A DNA stretch of 64,000 nucleotides from Bdellovibrio sp. SKB1291214 (GTDB taxonomy: Bacteria > Bdellovibrionota > Bdellovibrionia > Bdellovibrionales > Bdellovibrionaceae): positions 2,232,001-2,296,000 of the forward strand of contig NZ_CP106855.1 of NCBI RefSeq assembly GCF_002209355.2. The letters are read 5' to 3'. Positions 30,278 through 40,958 of this stretch are shown piece after piece. A program made the translations under genes and the position numbers. The notes under the pieces are model-generated. The model saw nothing but the letters and a program-made list of their open reading frames with translations. It had not been told where the DNA came from and searched no databases. Position 1 is the stretch's first letter. Each line of letters begins with the position of its first letter.

Positions 30278-30440
30278 GTTTCTAAGTAAAACAAGTTCAC
30301 AATTGTTTGGCAATTTCCGTCGCCGTGTTAGGATTTTTGACACTCTGAAAATATCTTCCCAATAGGTTTTCAACAACTGCTCACATAGGTCAATTTTTTG
30401 AGAAAACTCCCTCTGTGTGATACCTATTGCACCCAGCAAT

Positions 30441-31763
30441 ATGAGTCTAAAAAACAAAGCATTCCGATTCTTTTACAAAGTTCACGCCTACCTCGGTTTA
30501 TTCGTGGCAGTGCATTTTATTTTCTTAAGCATTAGCGGTTCGATTTTACTTTTCAAAGAAGAAGTCGAAGGCACGCCCGAAGTCTCGGCCGCCTCGGCTG
30601 AGCAAACATCCCTTTCTGTGTCGGAACTGATGACGAATGTTTTGAATAAGTATCCGGGCGAAAGACCCCTCGCGGTTTTCAAGGATGATGAGCATGAAAA
30701 CATCCTCAACGTGCGCCTGGGAATGAACGATACCAAGATGTTTCGTGGTGCTCGCAAGCTGACTTACGATGCACGCACAGGGGCTGAGATCAATGTTGAA
30801 GCCAGCAAAAGCGATTTCATGGAAGTTATGCTTAAGCTTCATCGTGAGTTCTTCCTAGGTTCGACGGGTAAGATCTATGTCGGCATTATTGGATTGCTTT
30901 ACTTCTTTGTGATGCTTTCTGGATTTTTCATCTATGGTAACTTTGCCAAAAAAGTTGCTTTCGGTGAAGTGCGATTGAAATCACCCCGTCAGTGGACCTC
31001 AGATATGCACCGCTATATCGGTATCGGAGTTATGGCCTGGGGTTTGATCATTGGCGGGACAGGTTTCCTTTTGGGAATAAGTTCAACTTTGATCAAGGTT
31101 TACCAATATCAAGAACTGAAAGAGATCACCAAGCAGTACAAAGACCTGCACGGCGACAATGATCATCTGCATAATGCAGGCGTATTAGATAATGTGATCA
31201 AAACTTCCGAAAAGGCATTGCCAGATTCCAAAGTGGATTACATCGCCATGCCAGATACACAATTTTCTCCTCCCAATCATTTTCTGGTTGTGATGAATGG
31301 CAACACCCCGCAAACAGAACGCATGGTTCAACTGGTTGTGGTTGATGCTGCGACAGGATTGCAAGGAGAAGTTCGTAATCTGCCTTGGTACATGAAAATC
31401 ACCTTGGCATCGGAGCCTTTGCATTTTGGAAATTACGGCGGACTTTTCCTAAAGATCGTTTGGCTGGGTTTTTCGATCTTTTCTTTGGCTTTGCCGATAA
31501 TGGGGTTGGTGATTTGGTATAAGCGTAGAAATCCCTCAGCCGCGACCAGTTCTGCCAAAAATGAATCCAGTAAACTGTCGGACTCAAAATTATTCCAAAG
31601 TCGCTTTGCAATTCCGATGATCTTGTTTGTCGTGACGGCCGTCATGATTATCGCCGCCTTTATCCTAGGCGGTGCATTCGCGATGGCTTCAGGATATGTG
31701 CTTTTGATTCCGTTGATTTTGACAGGCATGGTTGTTCTTCGTGGTAGCGGAGGGCGTTCGTGA
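30441..31763 (+). CDS. PepSY-associated membrane protein (probable ferric-siderophore reductase)
   Basis: A 440-residue inner-membrane protein. Helix 1 carries KVHAYLGLFVAVHF (about 8-21) with two His. It is followed by a PepSY periplasmic region and KLHREFFLGSTGKIYVG, DMHRYIGIGVMAWGL and later helices, the histidine pattern of PepSY_TM proteins that reduce or handle iron. The start at 30441 gives a clean N-terminus. It is the first gene of the siderophore operon and overlaps the MFS gene by four bases. The probable role is reductive release of iron in the periplasm or at the inner membrane; a structural or regulatory role is the alternative. Confidence 0.75.
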   Translation: MSLKNKAFRFFYKVHAYLGLFVAVHFIFLSISGSILLFKEEVEGTPEVSAASAEQTSLSVSELMTNVLNKYPGERPLAVFKDDEHENILNVRLGMNDTKMFRGARKLTYDARTGAEINVEASKSDFMEVMLKLHREFFLGSTGKIYVGIIGLLYFFVMLSGFFIYGNFAKKVAFGEVRLKSPRQWTSDMHRYIGIGVMAWGLIIGGTGFLLGISSTLIKVYQYQELKEITKQYKDLHGDNDHLHNAGVLDNVIKTSEKALPDSKVDYIAMPDTQFSPPNHFLVVMNGNTPQTERMVQLVVVDAATGLQGEVRNLPWYMKITLASEPLHFGNYGGLFLKIVWLGFSIFSLALPIMGLVIWYKRRNPSAATSSAKNESSKLSDSKLFQSRFAIPMILFVVTAVMIIAAFILGGAFAMASGYVLLIPLILTGMVVLRGSGGRS

Positions 31764-32965
31764 ACTTAGCGATCCTGGCAAACTTAAACACTATCACCTT
31801 CAGTGCGCTGCAGATTCTGTTGTTCACGCTTTTGCCCTATTTGGCAGAAACGATGCACATCAGTCTGGCGACGGTGGTGGCCACGTTTAGTGCCGGATCG
31901 TTTTTGTTTTTATGGTCTTCACCGTACTGGGCGGCAAAAAGTGATAAAACAGGTCGCCAGCCCATTTTGATTGCAGGCCTTGCCGGTTTGGGAATTTCCA
32001 CAGTCCTGTTGTGGTCGCTCACTCAGTGGGGCGCTCAGATGGGTGCCGTGGTAGTCACTGTGATTTTGGTTTTAAGCCGTGTGATTTATGGATTGCTGGC
32101 ATCAGCGATCATTCCAGTCGCGCAGGCTTTGCAAGTCGATATGTCAGAATCTAAATCTGCAATGAAGGCGATGATTTCAAACTCGATGAGCTTAAATATT
32201 GGCCGCTCGTTAGGTCCCATTTATGTTTTACTAAGCGGCGGTCAAAACATGGACCAGGTCCTCGCCGGTTTCTTGCTGTGGATTGTCTTGTTGATCGGTG
32301 CCAATCTTTGGGCTCTGCGTTTGCAATCGCCACAGATGAAAACCGCCGCAGCTCAAGAAGCGGGAGCTTCGTCTTGGAGTCTCGCTTTCAATCGCATGCG
32401 CTGGGTGTTCTTGCTAGCGATCCTTTTCACAAGTTTCATTGGTATTTTAAATTCTTCATTGGCAGTGATTCTGAAGCACAGTTTCTCGTTAAGCAGCCAG
32501 GATTCTGGGGTGTTGATGGCTAAACTCCTGTTGGTCAGCTCAGTGATTGCAGTGGTGACTCAGTTTTTGGGCCGGATGTTTTTCAAAAATCCTTGGCAAG
32601 GTGCCTTGGTGATTGGAGCTCTGACGTTGCTTGTGGGCTCGGTTCTGCTTCAAGTGATGAACTTGGAATCACAGCTTTGGACTGCGATTGTGTTTTTGTC
32701 AGTTGGGATCGCTTTGGTTCCACCATGCTATTTGACTTTGATGACGATGGTGGACCCGCAGCATGTGGGTTTGGGACGTAAAGCGGGTATTGTCAGTGCA
32801 GCGAATACAATTGGTTATGCCGTGGGCGGAGCCATGGCTGCACTGACTTTGAAAATTAAATTGTTCTCTTTAGAAACACTGTTGATCGCCTTGGTGGTTC
32901 TTATGATGGTCAGCATTGTGGTTCTTTATCGCCAACGTGAAGTCTTGGCAGGGAGGCGTAAATGA
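31760..32965 (+). CDS. MFS transporter, probable siderophore exporter (ShiF-like)
   Basis: A 401-residue major facilitator with about 12 hydrophobic segments. The loop between helices 2 and 3 contains the family motif WAAKSDKTGRQPILIAG (about 54-70). It begins with GTG overlapping the PepSY stop (GTGA) and its own stop overlaps the NIS synthetase ATG (ATGA). In enterobacterial aerobactin loci an MFS protein of about the same size (ShiF) lies at exactly this position, immediately before iucA. Siderophore efflux is therefore the likely function, though substrate specificity cannot be read from sequence. Confidence 0.82.
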   Translation: MNLAILANLNTITFSALQILLFTLLPYLAETMHISLATVVATFSAGSFLFLWSSPYWAAKSDKTGRQPILIAGLAGLGISTVLLWSLTQWGAQMGAVVVTVILVLSRVIYGLLASAIIPVAQALQVDMSESKSAMKAMISNSMSLNIGRSLGPIYVLLSGGQNMDQVLAGFLLWIVLLIGANLWALRLQSPQMKTAAAQEAGASSWSLAFNRMRWVFLLAILFTSFIGILNSSLAVILKHSFSLSSQDSGVLMAKLLLVSSVIAVVTQFLGRMFFKNPWQGALVIGALTLLVGSVLLQVMNLESQLWTAIVFLSVGIALVPPCYLTLMTMVDPQHVGLGRKAGIVSAANTIGYAVGGAMAALTLKIKLFSLETLLIALVVLMMVSIVVLYRQREVLAGRRK

Positions 32966-34749
32966 ATTTGCACGAATTAACACTTCGTCATTCAGCTTCT
33001 TGTTTCTTTAATTCACTTTTTCGCGAGTGGTTTGACTATTCGATCGGCGATGCTCCGACTGCTGTTTCTGTGAAGACCGGATGCAAGCTGGTTTTGACGA
33101 TTCAATTAACAGGCGGCGAGACGCTTTATTTGCCTTTGACACGGCATTCGTTGATGGGACGTCATCAATACCATTCCCTCTTTTTTGTCGCACAAGGTGA
33201 TTTCATAACTGAAATGTCCTTCATGGCTGTGGCAGACAAGCTCGTGAAACATCTAACGACGGTTTTTCCAAACAGTGTGGGTAATGATGCGGTCTTTATG
33301 GAGCGCTTAAAGAACTCCGTTGAAAATATCGAGTTGGCGCTAGGACACCGCAAACCGGATTTGGAAAGCATTTACACTCAGCCCCTGAACTTTCAGCAAG
33401 CCGAGCAAGGCCTGATGATCGGTCATAACTTTCATCCGTATCCGAAGATGCGCGAAGGTTTCGATGAAGCCGACTATCGCAAATACTCCCCCGAGATGGC
33501 GGGACGGTTTGCCTTGAGTTGGTTCTTGGCAAAACCAGAAATTCTGTCCAACGAAAAAGCACAAAAATTCGCCGTTGAACAATGGACGATGGATGTCTTT
33601 ATGAAGGACTTCGCTGATTCCAAGTTGGCTTCTGAGAAATTGAAAGCGGGTTACGTTCCGTTCCCAGTGCATCCTTGGCAGAAACAACATCTTTTGAAAA
33701 ATAAAACGATACAGTCCTATCTTGAAAAAGGGGATTTGATTGATTTGGGCATGGCTGATAAGCCTTGGTATCCCACGACTTCGTTGCGTTCTATCTATGC
33801 TCCTCATTCTCCGTATATGATGAAGTTTTCTTTAACTCTGCGTCTGACAAACTCGATTCGCCATTTGACGCTTGTTGAAGTGGTGCGTGGGCTACAAGTT
33901 TATGATGTCTTTATGACTGCTAAAGCCCAAGAGTTTTCTCGCAAGCATCCGCAGTTCCATGTGGTGTTTGAGCCGGCATTTATGGCATTGAAAGACCTGA
34001 ATGGCGAAATTTTGACAGACTCAATCGTTGTTTGTCGCGAAAATCCATTTATGGAACCGAACCAGGAAGAGGCCGTTGTCCTTTCAACATTGGCTCAAGA
34101 CAATCCCCTTGGTGGCGAAAACTTGATTCAGAAGGCCATCCGTAAGGAAGCAGCAAAAACTCACCGCTCTTTAGGGGATATCGCGCAGCAGTGGTTTGCT
34201 CGTTATTTGGAAGTGGCTGTGAAGCCATTGGTTCATGCGCAAGCGAATTACGGAATCTTATTAGGAGCGCATCAACAAAATCTGATCTTAAGCTTAAAAG
34301 CAAATTTTCCAGAGAAAGCTTATTTTAGAGACTGCCAAGGCACAGGTTACAGTCATTTTGGATTTTCTTTATACGGGACAGAAGTGGCAAGCCTGCAAAT
34401 GGAAAATGGGAATATCTTAGACGACAAGGGCAACATCCTATTCGCATATTATTTGATGATTAACTCGACATTCAATGTGATTGCGGCGATCGCGGCGGAC
34501 GGCTGGGTGAGTGAGGATGAACTTGTCACGGATCTGCGCAACTTCTTGCAATCCATTCGCGCATCGAATCCACAAGATCAATCGTGCTTAAACTACCTTT
34601 TGGATCAGCCAGAAATTTGGCACAAAGGGAATTTCACATGCAGTTTGCAAAACTTAAACGAAAATACGACGGCCAATCCACTGTCGATCTATAACTTGAT
34701 TAAAAACCCGATCGCCGCGGCTGCGATGAAGGCGGAGGAACTGGTATGA
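32962..34749 (+). CDS. NIS siderophore synthetase, IucA-like
   Basis: A 595-residue IucA/IucC-family ligase of standard length. GHNFHPYPKMREGF at 154-167 is the ATP-binding motif, and VPFPVHPWQ lies at about 230-238. The C-terminal FhuF-like region (about 420-590) contains VHAQANYGILLGAHQQNL and RDCQGTGYSHFGF. These enzymes adenylate citrate and condense it with an N-hydroxy-acyl amine. As the first of two such genes flanking an acyltransferase, it corresponds positionally to IucA, which attaches the first acylated hydroxylysine to citrate. Four-base overlaps link it to both neighbours. Confidence 0.92.
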   Translation: MNLHELTLRHSASCFFNSLFREWFDYSIGDAPTAVSVKTGCKLVLTIQLTGGETLYLPLTRHSLMGRHQYHSLFFVAQGDFITEMSFMAVADKLVKHLTTVFPNSVGNDAVFMERLKNSVENIELALGHRKPDLESIYTQPLNFQQAEQGLMIGHNFHPYPKMREGFDEADYRKYSPEMAGRFALSWFLAKPEILSNEKAQKFAVEQWTMDVFMKDFADSKLASEKLKAGYVPFPVHPWQKQHLLKNKTIQSYLEKGDLIDLGMADKPWYPTTSLRSIYAPHSPYMMKFSLTLRLTNSIRHLTLVEVVRGLQVYDVFMTAKAQEFSRKHPQFHVVFEPAFMALKDLNGEILTDSIVVCRENPFMEPNQEEAVVLSTLAQDNPLGGENLIQKAIRKEAAKTHRSLGDIAQQWFARYLEVAVKPLVHAQANYGILLGAHQQNLILSLKANFPEKAYFRDCQGTGYSHFGFSLYGTEVASLQMENGNILDDKGNILFAYYLMINSTFNVIAAIAADGWVSEDELVTDLRNFLQSIRASNPQDQSCLNYLLDQPEIWHKGNFTCSLQNLNENTTANPLSIYNLIKNPIAAAAMKAEELV

Positions 34750-35714
34750 ATCAACAGACGTACTTGCATGTTCAAGAAAACAAAAAATATACAGCTCATC
34801 TAGCGGGGAACGTTTTAACCGTCACCGGGTCAGAAATGGGGACAGAGATTCCTGCGACAGCGTCGGAGGGCCAGGCAGCAACGTTCAATGTTGAAGAGTC
34901 GGCAGACAAAATCCAACTGTTAAGTAAAAATGCGACGGCGGGATCTTCTTTGGTGGCGATGGAGCATCTTTTCACTCACAAGCCGGACTTAAAAGCAATT
35001 GCCCTTAATCAGCAATCGGTTGTCAGAGCAGACTTTTATCAAAACCCTTCATTGTGGTGTGCTTATGGGACACAAAATGTAAAACCTGAACAGTGGATGT
35101 ATTCTGGGAATGTTTATCACCCCATTCGCCCACAGCAAAAACCAGGAGAGCTTCTTTACTCTCGTTACATTCCTAGCATTGGTAAAACTTTGAGCTTTCG
35201 TGTGATGGATGTGGAACGCGATCTAAAAACGTTCCATTTCTGGCACAATCAACCCTACGTCAATGAGTTCTGGGAGCTGGCAAAGCCAGAAGCCGAACTA
35301 AAGGAATACATTGAAAAAGGCTTGGCTGACTTGCATTCGATTCCAACGTTTGTTGAGTTCGATGGGGTGCCCGTCGGTTACTTTGAAATGTATTGGACAT
35401 TAGAAGACCGCTTGGGCCCTTACTATGAGTCGGAAGCGTTTGATCGCGGTTTCCATTTATTGATCGGGAACATGGATTACTTGGGTTTTAAAAATACAGA
35501 CGCAATTTTGAAATCGGCGACGCACTACTTGTTTTTAGAAGAGCCTCGCACACGCAAAATCATGGCAGAACCACGTTCGGATAATCAACGCATCATCCGT
35601 TATGTTGAAACTTTCTCGGCCTGGAAAAAATTAAAAGAGTTCGATTTCCCTCATAAACGGGCGGCTTTGTTAGAATGCCGTCGCGAAAGATTCTTTATGG
35701 GGAATTTCCTGTGA
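34746..35714 (+). CDS. Siderophore N-hydroxylysine O/N-acyltransferase (IucB-like GNAT)
   Basis: A 322-residue protein with a poorly conserved N-terminal half and a C-terminal GNAT domain of the siderophore type: DVERDLKTFHFWHNQPYVNEFWE, FVEFDGVPVGYFEMYWTLEDRLGPYY, GFHLLIGN and TRKIMAEPRSDNQRIIRY. It should acetylate N6-hydroxylysine (or another hydroxylated amine) using acyl-CoA. IucB is 315 residues, close to this length. Located between the two NIS synthetases, as in iucABC. Confidence 0.9.
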   Translation: MNQQTYLHVQENKKYTAHLAGNVLTVTGSEMGTEIPATASEGQAATFNVEESADKIQLLSKNATAGSSLVAMEHLFTHKPDLKAIALNQQSVVRADFYQNPSLWCAYGTQNVKPEQWMYSGNVYHPIRPQQKPGELLYSRYIPSIGKTLSFRVMDVERDLKTFHFWHNQPYVNEFWELAKPEAELKEYIEKGLADLHSIPTFVEFDGVPVGYFEMYWTLEDRLGPYYESEAFDRGFHLLIGNMDYLGFKNTDAILKSATHYLFLEEPRTRKIMAEPRSDNQRIIRYVETFSAWKKLKEFDFPHKRAALLECRRERFFMGNFL

Positions 35715-37519
35715 GTTTAACTGCGAACACTCTTCATTCTGGATCCGCGTGGGTGCGCGTAAATCAGAACCTGGTGGCAAAAAGCCTTCAGGAGCTTAGC
35801 TATGAGCAAATTTTAAAACCCACGAGTCAGCCTTCAGCCACTGCTGCAGGAGAATCCTCTGACGTTCAGAATTATGTGTTCGCCTTGCAAAGTGGAGTTG
35901 AATACCACTGTCAGGGTTGGCAGGGTATTTGGACCGATATTAAAGTGCAATCCGACTCTATCATGAGGGTTGTAGATGGCATTAAAATGCCAGTGAAAAG
36001 TGCGGGACAGTTTTTTATCGACTGCCAAAAAGAAACCGGCATGGATGATATCATTCTTGGAAACTTCCTGGAAGAAATGCACAACACGCTCTTTTCAGAC
36101 TTGCGCATCGAAAGAAAGCAGGCCGAACAAACATCTGAAGAAATGACGAAGTGGTCAGGGCTTAAAATTCAGTCGGTCCTTAATGGCCATCCCAAACTTT
36201 TGTTGAACAAAGGTCGCATCACTTGGAGTGAAGGCGATTTGCAAGAATTTGCCCCGGAAAGTCAGCCCGTAATTCGTCTGATGTGGTTGGCAATTCGTAA
36301 GAATTCAGCGTTAGCCGCTGCGATGCCCGGGGTGAATACGGATGTTATTTTGGGTCAGTCGATGGATGAAGCGGAATTAAAACGTTTTGATCAGGAGTTG
36401 GCGGAACTAGAGCTTACTAAATCAGATTACGTTTTCGTTCCAGTTCATCCATGGCAGTGGGACCGTTTTATCCAAGTGCAATTTGCAGGGGAACTTTCCA
36501 CTGGAGTCATTAAGGCTTTGGGAGTTTTTGGTGACGAGTATCAGCCGCAAATTTCTATTCGCACATTGTCGAATATTTCTCGTCCAGGTCAGTGGGATAT
36601 TAAACTGCCGGTTACTATTTTAAATACTTCCAGCATCCGCGGAATTGCTGCGAAATACATTCCCGTGGGTGGCGAGCTGTCTCAAAAAATGACCGATATC
36701 TGTGCGGCGGATCCACTTTTAAAGAACGTGCAGGTCTTAAGTGAAAAAGCGGGCGTCAGCTTTCAGCATCCAATTTATAAGCAAGTCACTATGGCTCCCT
36801 ATCGCTATCACGAATACCTGGGAGCTATTTGGAGAGAGTGTGCTGAATCTAAAGCTGGCCCCGGTGAGTCTGCAGTTTTAACTGGAAGTTTCTTTCATAA
36901 GGATGCGGCAGGAAATTCTTTGTTAGGTTCTTATGTGAAGGCCTCCGGCTTAACGATGTCCCAATGGCTTCGTCGTTATTTCGAAGTGGTTGTCGTACCT
37001 TTGTATCATCTGCAACTTAAATACGGGATTGGCCTGGTTTCCCACGGTCAGAATATCGTTCTTAAGTTAAAAGATCATGCCCCCGTCGGTCTGATCATCA
37101 AAGATTTCCAAGGGGACCTTCGTTTGGCGAAGAATTCCATCTTGGTAGAGCAGTCTGCAAGTCTGGCTAGCCATTTATTGCAGCTACCTCGCAATTACTT
37201 AATTCATGATTTGTTCACGGGACATTTTGTCACGGTTTTGCGTTTTGTTTCGGAAGTTTTGAAAGAGTGCGATGGTTACTCGGAATACGACTTTTACGGT
37301 ATTTTGGGCGAAGTTCTTCGCGATTATCTTTCAACTACGGGGAAAAACTTGAATGTGGATGACAGCGTCAACCTTCTGGCGGAAAAAATGCCTCGTGTGC
37401 TGGTAAATAAAGTGCGTTTTAAGATCGGTTATGCCGACTCCCATGAGCGCCCGGTCCCCATGGTCGGAGACGAACTTCTGAATCCATTAGTCTTAGGACT
37501 TAATAAAGGAGCACCGTAA
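35711..37519 (+). CDS. NIS siderophore synthetase, IucC-like
   Basis: A 602-residue IucA/IucC-family ligase. The GTG start at 35711 gives a four-base overlap with the acyltransferase stop, matching the other junctions, and GGGGA lies upstream; a frame from 35675 would overlap the neighbour by 40 bp. The motif LNGHPKLLLNKGRITWS (about 160-176) differs from the first synthetase, and VFVPVHPWQWDRF and the C-terminal HGQNIVLKLKDHAP and KDFQGDLRL follow. It would add the second acylated hydroxylysine to citrate. The two synthetases are clearly divergent paralogues, not a recent duplication. Confidence 0.92.
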   Translation: MSLTANTLHSGSAWVRVNQNLVAKSLQELSYEQILKPTSQPSATAAGESSDVQNYVFALQSGVEYHCQGWQGIWTDIKVQSDSIMRVVDGIKMPVKSAGQFFIDCQKETGMDDIILGNFLEEMHNTLFSDLRIERKQAEQTSEEMTKWSGLKIQSVLNGHPKLLLNKGRITWSEGDLQEFAPESQPVIRLMWLAIRKNSALAAAMPGVNTDVILGQSMDEAELKRFDQELAELELTKSDYVFVPVHPWQWDRFIQVQFAGELSTGVIKALGVFGDEYQPQISIRTLSNISRPGQWDIKLPVTILNTSSIRGIAAKYIPVGGELSQKMTDICAADPLLKNVQVLSEKAGVSFQHPIYKQVTMAPYRYHEYLGAIWRECAESKAGPGESAVLTGSFFHKDAAGNSLLGSYVKASGLTMSQWLRRYFEVVVVPLYHLQLKYGIGLVSHGQNIVLKLKDHAPVGLIIKDFQGDLRLAKNSILVEQSASLASHLLQLPRNYLIHDLFTGHFVTVLRFVSEVLKECDGYSEYDFYGILGEVLRDYLSTTGKNLNVDDSVNLLAEKMPRVLVNKVRFKIGYADSHERPVPMVGDELLNPLVLGLNKGAP

Positions 37520-37520
37520 G

Positions 37521-38798
37521 ATGGACCAAAAATATAATCTTATTGGTATCGGTATCGGCGTATTCAATCTGTCTCTTGCTGCACTTGCTGACAAAACGGC
37601 AGGCGTGCATTCTGCATTCTTTGACGGGAAACCGAATTTTGACTGGCACTCTGAAATCATGTTTGCGGATTCTGAAATGCAGACCTCATTCCTTAAAGAC
37701 TTGGTCATGGGTGCAGACCCAACAAATCCTTACAGCTTCATGAATTACTTGGTGTCCAACGGCTTGTATTATTCTTTCATGAACACGAATCGCTCGGTGG
37801 TGACTCGTCGTGAATTTGAGATGTACTGCCAATGGGTCAGTAAACAGTTGGTCCACCGTTTGAATTTTGGCGCACAAATTGACGAAGTGAACTTTAAGGA
37901 CGGTCAGTTCCTGGTTCGCGCGGGAAATAACGTTTCTAAAGCCGATAACATCTGTATCGGAACAGGCCTTACGCCAAATATTCCTGATTTCGCCAAGGAC
38001 TTTATTGGTCCCAAAGTATTCCACGCCAAATCTTCGCATCTTAAAAGCTTAGATGTGACGGGTAAAAATGTTGTTGTGATCGGAGGCGGTCAGACGGGGA
38101 TTGAAATCTTCCGTAACTGCTTTAAAGGCAAATGGGGGCAAGCTAACAGCACACGCATGATTTCCAGCCGTCAAAACTTAGAGCCCTTGGACAACTCTCC
38201 CTTCGTGAACGAATACTTCACTCCGTATTACGTGGAAGAGTTCTTTGGCTTAGATCAAACGTTGAAAGATCCTATCGTTCGTCATCAAAAAATGGCTTCG
38301 GACGGTAACACGCCAGAATATCTGGAGGCGATGTACAACGATATCTATCAAATTCGTCACGTGCACCAATCTGAAGCGGTGATTGAAATCCTGCCGTCAC
38401 GTTGCATGGATCGTATCGAGGAAGCGGGTAATGGTTATAAATTAACTGTTAGCAGCACATTTTCAAATAAGACGGAAACACACTTTGCCGATATCGTGAT
38501 CTTAAGTACGGGGTTTAGAACTCGTATTCCGCACATCATTGAGCCGATCCAAAATATGATCGACTTTGATGCCAATGGACGTTTCATTTTACAGAAGAAT
38601 TTCTCTGTGAAATGGAAAGGCCCGAAAGAGAATAAGATTTATGCCATGAATTTCAGTCGTCATGGTCACGGCATCTCTGAACCGCAAACAAGCTTGATGG
38701 CGTGGAGATCTGCTTCCATCCTAAATGATTTGTTGGGTAAAGAGCACTATCAGACTTCAAAAACAGTTCCTAATTTTGTTAGCTATAAAGGATTATAA
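37521..38798 (+). CDS. L-lysine/ornithine N-hydroxylase, IucD-like
   Basis: A 425-residue flavin monooxygenase that hydroxylates the side-chain amine of lysine (or ornithine). The N-terminal FAD motif LIGIGIGVFNLSLAAL (about 7-22), MQTSFLKDLVMGADPTNPYSF (about 53-73), the NADPH motif VVVIGGGQTGIEIF (about 185-198) and the C-terminal ISEPQTSLMAWRSA are all present. The sequence resembles IucD along its length, including MASDG and KWKGPKENKI. It starts one base after the IucC-like gene. Lysine as substrate is inferred from that resemblance. Confidence 0.92.
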   Translation: MDQKYNLIGIGIGVFNLSLAALADKTAGVHSAFFDGKPNFDWHSEIMFADSEMQTSFLKDLVMGADPTNPYSFMNYLVSNGLYYSFMNTNRSVVTRREFEMYCQWVSKQLVHRLNFGAQIDEVNFKDGQFLVRAGNNVSKADNICIGTGLTPNIPDFAKDFIGPKVFHAKSSHLKSLDVTGKNVVVIGGGQTGIEIFRNCFKGKWGQANSTRMISSRQNLEPLDNSPFVNEYFTPYYVEEFFGLDQTLKDPIVRHQKMASDGNTPEYLEAMYNDIYQIRHVHQSEAVIEILPSRCMDRIEEAGNGYKLTVSSTFSNKTETHFADIVILSTGFRTRIPHIIEPIQNMIDFDANGRFILQKNFSVKWKGPKENKIYAMNFSRHGHGISEPQTSLMAWRSASILNDLLGKEHYQTSKTVPNFVSYKGL

Positions 38799-38822
38799 AA
38801 AGGAAAGAAGGAAAAGGGAGAA

Positions 38823-40898
38823 ATGAGAATTTTCATCGCAGCATTGTTCACCATGCAGGCCTGCTTAGCACAGGCTCAAACACCACAGACGACACCAGAA
38901 ACCACAGAAAGTAAACCCACAGAATCTTACCAACTTCAAAAGGTAGAAATCCTTGGTAATAAAGAGGATAAGTCTTACCTAGAAAGTACAGAGTCTATCT
39001 CTGTTCTTCAGGCGGAGACCTATGATAAGGGCGTAAAAACAGATTCTATTAAAGCCTTGAACGCACTTCCTAACGTTCAAGTGACTAAGAATGACAATAC
39101 ATTCAGTATCCGCGGTATTAACAATATCGGTGTCACGGGCTATCAAAAAGACAACTTGGCATCCATTATGGTCGATGACGTTTTCCAAACGGACCTTGCG
39201 ATTTCCGCAGGTGCTTTTGATTTCTGGGATTTGGATCACGTAGAAATCTATCGTGGCGCTCAATCCACAACTCAAGGTGTGAATTCTTTGGCAGGTAATA
39301 TTCTTTTGTTCCATCGTAAGGCGAGCGAACAAACGGAAGGTGCTGCTAAGGCAGGAGTCGGCACCTATGGTTACAAAGAAATCGGCGCAGTTACCAACAA
39401 TACGATGCTCGATAAAAAGATTTTGACTCGTGTTGCTGTAAATGTGGAACGTTACGATGGCTTCATCGATAATGTGACTACTGGTAATGATCGCTGGGGA
39501 CGTCAGGATAAGAACTATATCTCTGGAGACATGATTTATAAAATCAACGCTTTCGACGAAATCCGTTGGAACTTGAAGGTCATGCAGACCGAGAACGGCG
39601 GAACTTACTCTCAGTCAACTAACCCATTCGATTATCATGTGTATGAAGACGTCGATAACCGCACGCTGACTAATAACCAGCAAACAAGTCTTCGCTACAC
39701 CCAGAAAATCAACGAGAATAGCAGCAACGAAACCATCCTGGCTTACTCTCAAAGTGATCAAGATGCGACGGCAGATGCTGACGGAACTTCATCAAACACA
39801 GCCGGTGTTCGCTATGAGGATCACACCGATAATTACTTGAGTGTTGAAAATCTGTACAAATATCAAAGCGAAAAAATTAAAAACGTTTTGGGTTTGCACT
39901 TTCATGACTACACAATCAAAGATGATTACAACTTTAACGTGCTAGCTCCGGGACCTGTTCCGGTTCGTCAAAAAACTGAAAAGTACCAAGATACTTACGC
40001 GATCTTTGATTCAATGCTTTATAAGTTCAATGAATCTCACGCCATGAATTTGGGACTTCGTTACGAGTACATGAAAAACAAATTTGATTCTTACATCGTT
40101 TATGGAACGACAAGAACTGCGAACGGTAACGAAGAGGGCGGTATCTTACTGCCTAAGATTGGTTATGTATTCTCTCACGGTATCAGCTCCTACGGCGTGT
40201 CTTACACTCAAGGTTACCGTACAGGTGGTGTCAGCGTGAATCGCTGGACTTCAAACGTTTCTCAATACGACCCAGAAACGACTCACAACTTTGAGTTAAG
40301 TTATAAGTGTGTCCAAGATCAGCTGAAAGTGGCAGCTAACGTGTTTTACACTCACTGGGTGGACCAGCAGGTTTTAATCCAGTACGCGGCAAACAATCCG
40401 TACAACTCGGCGACAGTCAATGCTGCAAGCTCTGAAGTTTACGGCGCGGAATTGGAAGCACAGTACACGATCAATCCACAAAATTTATTGGGTATGGGGG
40501 TCGGTTACAACCATACCAAGTTCATCGATTTTAAAGGGCCTTTGAACCAAAACTACGATGGCAATGAATTCCCATTTGCAAGTCCGTGGACTGGAAGCGT
40601 GAACTACGTGTTCAAGCCAACGGACAACTGGGCTTGGGACACGACTCTTAGATACTTGGCGCAAAGTTACAGCGATGCTGCGAACACGTCCGCCAAAAGA
40701 GCTCCAGAGCAGTTCTATTTGGATACTTCGTTGGCCTACCTGATTGCACCTATCAGCTTGAATGTTGAAACATATATTAGAAACGTCCTTGATCAAAAAT
40801 ACGTGACTTACGACGCTTCCAACGCGTTCTACGGTACGAAAGTGTATCAAGTAAATTCTCCGCGCGAATTTGGGGCTCGAGTGACTTACTTCTGGTAA
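38823..40898 (+). CDS. TonB-dependent siderophore receptor
   Basis: A 691-residue outer-membrane receptor. It has a signal peptide (about 1-18, ending LAQAQ) and a TonB-box-like stretch near SYQLQKVEILG (about 35-45). The plug domain (about 55-170) contains NALPNVQVTKNDNTFSIRGI and LDHVEIYRGAQSTTQGVNSL. The 22-stranded barrel ends in FGARVTYFW with the terminal aromatic. It follows the hydroxylase by 24 bases with AAAGGGAG before the ATG. Positionally it equals iutA, but I cannot tell from sequence whether it is IutA-type or another receptor for the same compound. It is the last gene of the operon. Confidence 0.92.
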   Translation: MRIFIAALFTMQACLAQAQTPQTTPETTESKPTESYQLQKVEILGNKEDKSYLESTESISVLQAETYDKGVKTDSIKALNALPNVQVTKNDNTFSIRGINNIGVTGYQKDNLASIMVDDVFQTDLAISAGAFDFWDLDHVEIYRGAQSTTQGVNSLAGNILLFHRKASEQTEGAAKAGVGTYGYKEIGAVTNNTMLDKKILTRVAVNVERYDGFIDNVTTGNDRWGRQDKNYISGDMIYKINAFDEIRWNLKVMQTENGGTYSQSTNPFDYHVYEDVDNRTLTNNQQTSLRYTQKINENSSNETILAYSQSDQDATADADGTSSNTAGVRYEDHTDNYLSVENLYKYQSEKIKNVLGLHFHDYTIKDDYNFNVLAPGPVPVRQKTEKYQDTYAIFDSMLYKFNESHAMNLGLRYEYMKNKFDSYIVYGTTRTANGNEEGGILLPKIGYVFSHGISSYGVSYTQGYRTGGVSVNRWTSNVSQYDPETTHNFELSYKCVQDQLKVAANVFYTHWVDQQVLIQYAANNPYNSATVNAASSEVYGAELEAQYTINPQNLLGMGVGYNHTKFIDFKGPLNQNYDGNEFPFASPWTGSVNYVFKPTDNWAWDTTLRYLAQSYSDAANTSAKRAPEQFYLDTSLAYLIAPISLNVETYIRNVLDQKYVTYDASNAFYGTKVYQVNSPREFGARVTYFW

Positions 40899-40923: not shown

Positions 40924-40958
40924 AAAAAAGGCTCCCCCGAAACGGGAGCCTTTTTTTT
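40924..40958. terminator. Bidirectional intrinsic terminator after the siderophore operon
   Basis: GGCTCCC (40930-40936), a seven-base loop and GGGAGCC (40944-40950) are flanked by A6 and T8. It serves the receptor gene and the convergent comEC C-terminal frame ending at 40960. Confidence 0.93.

What the first reader, a model, noticed from the sequence alone, without database searches (positions are those of the whole stretch)
31760..40898. Complete aerobactin-type locus (shiF-iucABCD-receptor order) in a Bdellovibrio-like genome
Transporter, NIS synthetase, GNAT, NIS synthetase, IucD-like hydroxylase and TonB receptor occur in exactly the enterobacterial aerobactin order, with near-identical gene lengths and mostly 4-bp overlaps. 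The hydroxylase resembles IucD throughout. Production of its own citrate-hydroxamate siderophore would be unexpected for a lineage thought to obtain iron mainly from prey, and implies activity during a free-living phase or competition.
Basis: partly seen in the sequence, partly recalled or inferred. Interest (0 to 1): 0.72.

Follow-up and report, generated by a model that had tools for sequence, protein, structure and literature searches.

The report
Aerobactin-type siderophore operon in Bdellovibrio
This predatory bacterium carries a complete, apparently working set of genes to make and take back an aerobactin-like iron-scavenging molecule; about half of the sampled Bdellovibrio species, including the type strain HD100, carry the same set, so it is a real but known kind of pathway in an organism where it has hardly been studied.

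Summary
All four biosynthetic proteins are closer to aerobactin proteins than to rhizobactin ones. The first NIS synthetase matches solved IucA at 306 bits (next best 64), the second solved IucC at 349. The hydroxylase has the amino-acid pocket of IucD (K59, N230, S260, S391), not the diamine pocket of RhbE, DesB or DfoA. The genome lacks a PF00282 decarboxylase, so schizokinen or rhizobactin is unlikely. Most likely product: aerobactin or a lysine-citrate analogue with another acyl group.

"Exactly the enterobacterial order" is only partly right: the MFS gene is co-directional here but divergent in Vibrio and Cronobacter, the receptor shows no detectable similarity to theirs, and a PepSY_TM gene leads. 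The genome has FeoB but no FecCD permease over cut-off, suggesting periplasmic reduction of the ferric siderophore.

The operon occurs in 12 of 24 Bdellovibrio species, including the genome whose length equals HD100, at four or more chromosomal sites, under purifying selection. A siderophore cluster was already reported in B. bacteriovorus LR3. Ordinary chemistry, interesting ecology.

The parts
30359..30374 (+). Upstream motif CCAATAGGTTTTCAAC, a variant of which also precedes the operon at two other chromosomal sites; candidate promoter or operator, function unknown
   Evidence: Upstream sequences compared by eye; only exact match in the window. Related 14-mers elsewhere are inside or beside genes not obviously linked to iron
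30441..31763 (+). PepSY_TM membrane protein, candidate periplasmic ferric-siderophore reductase (FoxB/PiuB-like); first gene of the operon
   Evidence: PF03929 148.5 bits; orthologue heads the operon in all 12 same-genus genomes; function by analogy with FoxB/FhuB (PMC10866019)
31760..32965 (+). MFS transporter, candidate siderophore exporter (ShiF-like position, but co-directional)
   Evidence: PF07690 82.1 bits; about 28% identity to the divergent MFS of Vibrio iuc loci
32962..34749 (+). IucA-type NIS synthetase, 595 aa
   Evidence: PF04183 and PF06276; PDB 5jm7 IucA 306 bits, next best 64; many invariant motif residues in alignment A1
34746..35714 (+). IucB-type hydroxylysine N-acyltransferase (GNAT), 322 aa
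   Evidence: PF13523 151.3 bits; 42.6% to Vibrio and 38.7% to Cronobacter IucB
35711..37519 (+). IucC-type NIS synthetase, 602 aa from conserved GTG start
   Evidence: PDB 6cn7 IucC 349 bits, next best DesD 245; start codon
37521..38798 (+). IucD-type lysine N6-hydroxylase, 425 aa
   Evidence: PF13434 335.7 bits; K59, N230, S260, S391 as in IucD, absent in RhbE
38823..40898 (+). TonB-dependent outer-membrane receptor, 691 aa, not detectably similar to IutA
   Evidence: PF00593 and PF07715; no match to Cronobacter or Vibrio locus ORFs; orthologues in the operon across Bdellovibrionales
40924..40956 (.). 13-bp-stem hairpin with flanking A/T runs, likely bidirectional terminator shared with the convergent ComEC-like gene

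Best explanation
The operon makes, exports and retakes a citrate bis-hydroxamate siderophore of the aerobactin class. IucD hydroxylates L-lysine on N6, IucB acylates it (probably with acetyl), IucA couples the first unit to citrate and IucC the second. The MFS protein probably exports the product. The TonB receptor re-imports the ferric complex, and the PepSY_TM protein probably reduces it in the periplasm so that iron enters as Fe(II), for instance through FeoB, rather than through a FhuCDB-type ABC importer. Shown by sequence: gene content, order, family placement, pocket residues, conservation and selection. Inferred: enzymatic steps, export, periplasmic reduction, exact acyl group, expression.
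For: Domains. IucA to 5jm7 306 bits against 64 for the next; IucC to 6cn7 349 bits. tblastn bits against Vibrio / Cronobacter / rhizobactin loci: IucA 386/313/256, IucB 192/188/158, IucC 388/351/291, IucD 349/330/174. K59, N230, S260, S391 shared with IucD; A, L, Y, G in RhbE, with the structural meaning of the K107, N293, N323 and S469 equivalents from PMC8009421. No PF00282 decarboxylase and no dat over cut-off. Concatenated and single-gene trees place the window proteins in a Bdellovibrionota-centred clade inside the lysine-type group, the rhizobactin proteins being the assigned outgroup. FecCD not over cut-off, FeoB present, FoxB/FhuB precedent. dN/dS 0.03-0.09 where measurable.
Against: No metabolite data. 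The receptor is not detectably IutA-like. No Fur-box-like site was found upstream by a simple consensus match. The acyl group set by IucB cannot be read from sequence. The outgroup in the trees was chosen, not inferred.
Confidence: 0.85

Rival explanations
1. The product is authentic aerobactin, with acetyl as the acyl group (a narrower form of the best explanation).
For: All four biosynthetic proteins are closest to aerobactin proteins among the references with known products, and the hydroxylase carries the lysine-type pocket.
Against: IucB acyl specificity is undetermined. Lysine-citrate analogues with other acyl groups are known (from my own knowledge: ochrobactins, nannochelins). The receptor differs from that of the aerobactin loci compared.
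Confidence: 0.65
2. A schizokinen, rhizobactin 1021 or acinetoferrin-like siderophore built on 1,3-diaminopropane.
For: Same enzyme classes: two NIS synthetases, a GNAT and an N-hydroxylase.
Against: Hydroxylase 26% identical to RhbE, with the opposite pocket residues; no PF00282 decarboxylase and no dat over cut-off in the genome; gene order NIS-GNAT-NIS-hydroxylase instead of the rhizobactin order.
Confidence: 0.04
3. Arthrobactin-like product from cadaverine, or a macrocyclic diamine siderophore such as alcaligin or desferrioxamine.
For: The hydroxylase's best PDB match is a putrescine hydroxylase (222 bits), though no IucD structure turned up in that search; NIS2 also matches DesD and AlcC (about 245 bits).
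Against: Carboxylate-binding K and N retained, whereas the diamine enzymes lack them; the locus also encodes a citrate-type IucA; IucC outscores DesD and AlcC by about 100 bits.
Confidence: 0.05
4. The operon is intact but silent, or used mainly to exploit siderophores from others, so that no siderophore is made.
For: No expression data; no Fur-like site found; patchy distribution.
Against: Biosynthetic genes are under strong purifying selection (dN/dS 0.03-0.05 for IucB, IucC, IucD where measurable) and are always kept together with receptor and PepSY in same-genus genomes.
Confidence: 0.1

Closest known systems
Aerobactin locus iucABCD-iutA of enterobacteria and Vibrio
   Same: IucA-IucB-IucC-IucD-receptor order, protein lengths, about 33-43% identity, lysine-type hydroxylase pocket
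   Different: MFS gene co-directional and inside the operon, PepSY_TM gene leads, receptor not similar to theirs, proteins form a separate Bdellovibrionota-centred clade
Rhizobactin 1021 locus of Sinorhizobium meliloti pSymA
   Same: Two NIS synthetases, GNAT, N-hydroxylase
   Different: Diamine-type hydroxylase, different order, needs diaminopropane genes for which no candidate was found here
FoxB/FhuB (PepSY_TM) siderophore reductases of Pseudomonas and Burkholderia
   Same: PepSY_TM protein encoded with a siderophore TonB receptor
   Different: There linked to use of xenosiderophores; here inside a biosynthetic operon; reductase function not tested
Siderophore cluster reported in B. bacteriovorus LR3 (PMC12843806)
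   Same: Probably the same locus, since LR3 is 98.6% ANI to HD100 and the HD100-length genome carries it
   Different: Reported only as a siderophore cluster with coordinates; no substrate class, architecture or distribution found in the passages read

Membership tests
Aerobactin biosynthesis (iuc) | IucA-type NIS synthetase | tested here: met
   5jm7 306 bits against 64 for the next
Aerobactin biosynthesis (iuc) | IucC-type NIS synthetase | tested here: met
   6cn7 349 bits against 245 for DesD
Aerobactin biosynthesis (iuc) | IucB-type acyltransferase | tested here: met
   PF13523; 39-43% to iuc IucB, 33% to the rhizobactin one
Aerobactin biosynthesis (iuc) | Lysine N6-hydroxylase (IucD) | tested here: met
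   40-41% to IucD, 26% to RhbE; pocket residues K59, N230, S260, S391; sequence test only, enzyme activity not tested
Aerobactin biosynthesis (iuc) | Cognate receptor IutA | tested here: not met
   Receptor has no BLASTP match at E<=0.01 to ORFs of the Cronobacter or Vibrio loci. This is an uptake feature, not a biosynthetic one
Aerobactin biosynthesis (iuc) | Product aerobactin | not testable with these tools
   needs LC-MS
Rhizobactin/schizokinen type | Diaminopropane supply (dat and PF00282 decarboxylase) | tested here: not met
   PF00282 absent; dat only below cut-off
Rhizobactin/schizokinen type | Diamine-type hydroxylase pocket | tested here: not met
   K/N/S/S here, A/L/Y/G in RhbE
PepSY_TM (PiuB/FoxB) siderophore reductases | PepSY-associated TM region | tested here: met
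   PF03929 148.5 bits over 350 residues
PepSY_TM (PiuB/FoxB) siderophore reductases | Ferric-siderophore reductase activity | not testable with these tools
   inferred from gene context, absence of FecCD over cut-off and PMC10866019

The most novel reading that the evidence does not exclude
Bdellovibrionota make their own lysine-citrate hydroxamate (aerobactin or an acyl variant) that is private to them because it uses a receptor unlike IutA and periplasmic PepSY_TM reduction, and the operon spreads between species as a self-contained cassette used either by free attack-phase cells or to strip iron from prey.
Probability: 0.25. Interest if true: 0.6.

Novelty: new member of a known kind. Interest (0 to 1): 0.35.

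Why it matters
If the compound is made, a bacterium thought to get its iron from prey also invests in scavenging iron outside, which makes attack-phase iron physiology directly testable in HD100, a genetically tractable strain. It also documents an aerobactin-type system with a different uptake half.

Tried and rejected
Fur-box search upstream of the operon: best matches no better than shuffled sequence in the window, so no Fur control is claimed. The shared upstream motif was sought genome-wide to see whether it marks an iron regulon: the three further exact matches examined lie inside or beside genes with no obvious iron role, so it stays unexplained. One family scan failed on a bad reference and was rerun without it. 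Apparent stop codons in relatives' IucC and in IucA of G016 and G020 lie at the gene ends (upstream of the true IucC start, or the natural IucA stop), so they do not mark broken genes. A dat-like hit (109.7 bits against a cut-off of 401.6) was rejected. No structure was predicted: sequence matches to solved IucA and IucC were clear enough.

Full report
What is there. The window lies at 2232001-2296000 of a single-contig genome of 3,681,188 bases. From 30441 to 40898 on the + strand runs a compact operon of seven genes: a PepSY_TM membrane protein (30441-31763), an MFS transporter (31760-32965), an IucA-type NIS synthetase (32962-34749), a GNAT acyltransferase (34746-35714), an IucC-type NIS synthetase (35711-37519), a lysine/ornithine-type N-hydroxylase (37521-38798) and a TonB-dependent receptor (38823-40898). 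A 13-bp-stem hairpin with flanking A/T runs follows at 40924-40956. The mechanical ORF for IucC starts at 35675, but in relatives that extension is interrupted by stops, and the alignment supports the GTG at 35711, which gives a 4-bp overlap with IucB.

What it makes. The first NIS synthetase matches solved IucA (5jm7) at 306 bits, with the next structure at 64. The second matches solved IucC (6cn7) at 349, with desferrioxamine synthetases near 245. In tblastn against three reference loci, every biosynthetic protein scores highest on a Vibrio iuc-type locus, then on a Cronobacter iuc locus (annotated), then on the rhizobactin locus of S. meliloti: 386/313/256 for IucA, 192/188/158 for IucB, 388/351/291 for IucC and 349/330/174 for the hydroxylase. 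The hydroxylase was then read at the positions that bind the amino-acid end of the substrate. PMC8009421 reports that SidA binds ornithine through K107, N293, N323 and S469, and that the diamine enzyme DesB lacks these. The equivalents here, from the alignments, are K59, N230, S260 and S391. The Cronobacter and Vibrio IucD proteins read the same (K, N, S, S), while RhbE reads A, L, Y, G; the solved diamine hydroxylases likewise lack the lysine. The own genome has no PF00282 decarboxylase and no dat aminotransferase over cut-off. A lysine-citrate product of the aerobactin class is therefore the best reading. The acyl group cannot be read from sequence.

How it takes the iron back. The receptor has no BLASTP match at E<=0.01 to any ORF of the Cronobacter or Vibrio loci, and the MFS gene there is divergent rather than co-directional. 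No FecCD permease passes the family cut-off in the own genome, while FeoB does in 23 of 24 same-genus genomes, the own one included. PepSY_TM proteins such as FoxB and Burkholderia FhuB are described as periplasmic reductases for ferric hydroxamates (PMC10866019). I infer that the PepSY_TM protein plays this part here; it is not shown.

Where it occurs. Twelve of 24 same-genus genomes, the own one included, carry an IucA relative, and in the other eleven the same seven-gene order is conserved. One of them, G001, has exactly the 3,782,950 bases given for B. bacteriovorus HD100 in PMC12843806, so I take it to be HD100. At order level 18 of 141 genomes gave a match, not all of them full operons. 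A scan of named genomes added Bacteriovoracaceae and other Bdellovibrionota MAGs. The concatenated IucA+IucC+IucD tree, rooted on the rhizobactin proteins, places the window in a starred Bdellovibrionota-centred clade that also holds marine Nitrosomonas, apart from the Vibrio-Cronobacter clade. Single-gene trees of all four proteins agree on a Bdellovibrionota neighbourhood, with moderate support at the deeper nodes.

Gain and loss. In the window's close relatives the operon sits between ComEC-like genes and an AlkZ-related gene; in the HD100 group, the G003 group and G005 the flanks differ. HD100 has the window's flanking genes a few kilobases apart without the operon, and G008 has the HD100 flanks without it. 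Presence and absence need at least four changes on an rpoB tree of 23 genomes. Together this suggests a cassette gained, lost or moved as a unit. Between the window and two relatives dN/dS is 0.03-0.09 where dS was not saturated, and G+C content matches the rest of the window (45.0% against 45.7%), so the genes are maintained and not compositionally foreign.

Controls and negatives. A Fur-box consensus did no better upstream of the window operon than shuffled sequence. A motif shared upstream at three sites (window 30359-30374) has no demonstrated function, and its matches elsewhere gave no iron link.

What was known. PMC12843806 reports a siderophore synthesis cluster in B. bacteriovorus LR3, and PMC5941755 lists siderophores among genes in soil Bdellovibrio. 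Of the six library papers that hold both 'Bdellovibrio' and 'aerobactin', none showed a link between them in title or abstract; their full texts were not read. Novelty is therefore modest: a new member of a known kind, with a different uptake half and a clear experimental route.

Noticed in passing
L053:3115-4311 (own genome, C1 about 2776115-2777311): A 398-aa ORF with a signal-peptide-like N-terminus and weak IucA_IucC and FhuF domain matches (34.9 and 25.7 bits); similar 423-aa frames in G013 and G015. Possibly a secreted NIS-domain protein.
   Followed up: partly
L097, L101, L107, L109, L119: Iuc-type loci of marine Nitrosomonas and one gammaproteobacterial MAG nest inside the Bdellovibrionota-centred clade, which suggests horizontal transfer in one direction or the other.
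   Followed up: no
window 30359-30374: Upstream motif related to those before the operon at two other chromosomal sites; two copies about 22 bp apart in L038 and L043 by eye.
   Followed up: partly
L051:9614-11944: In G093 the IucA and IucB matches fall in one 776-aa frame, possibly a fusion.
   Followed up: no
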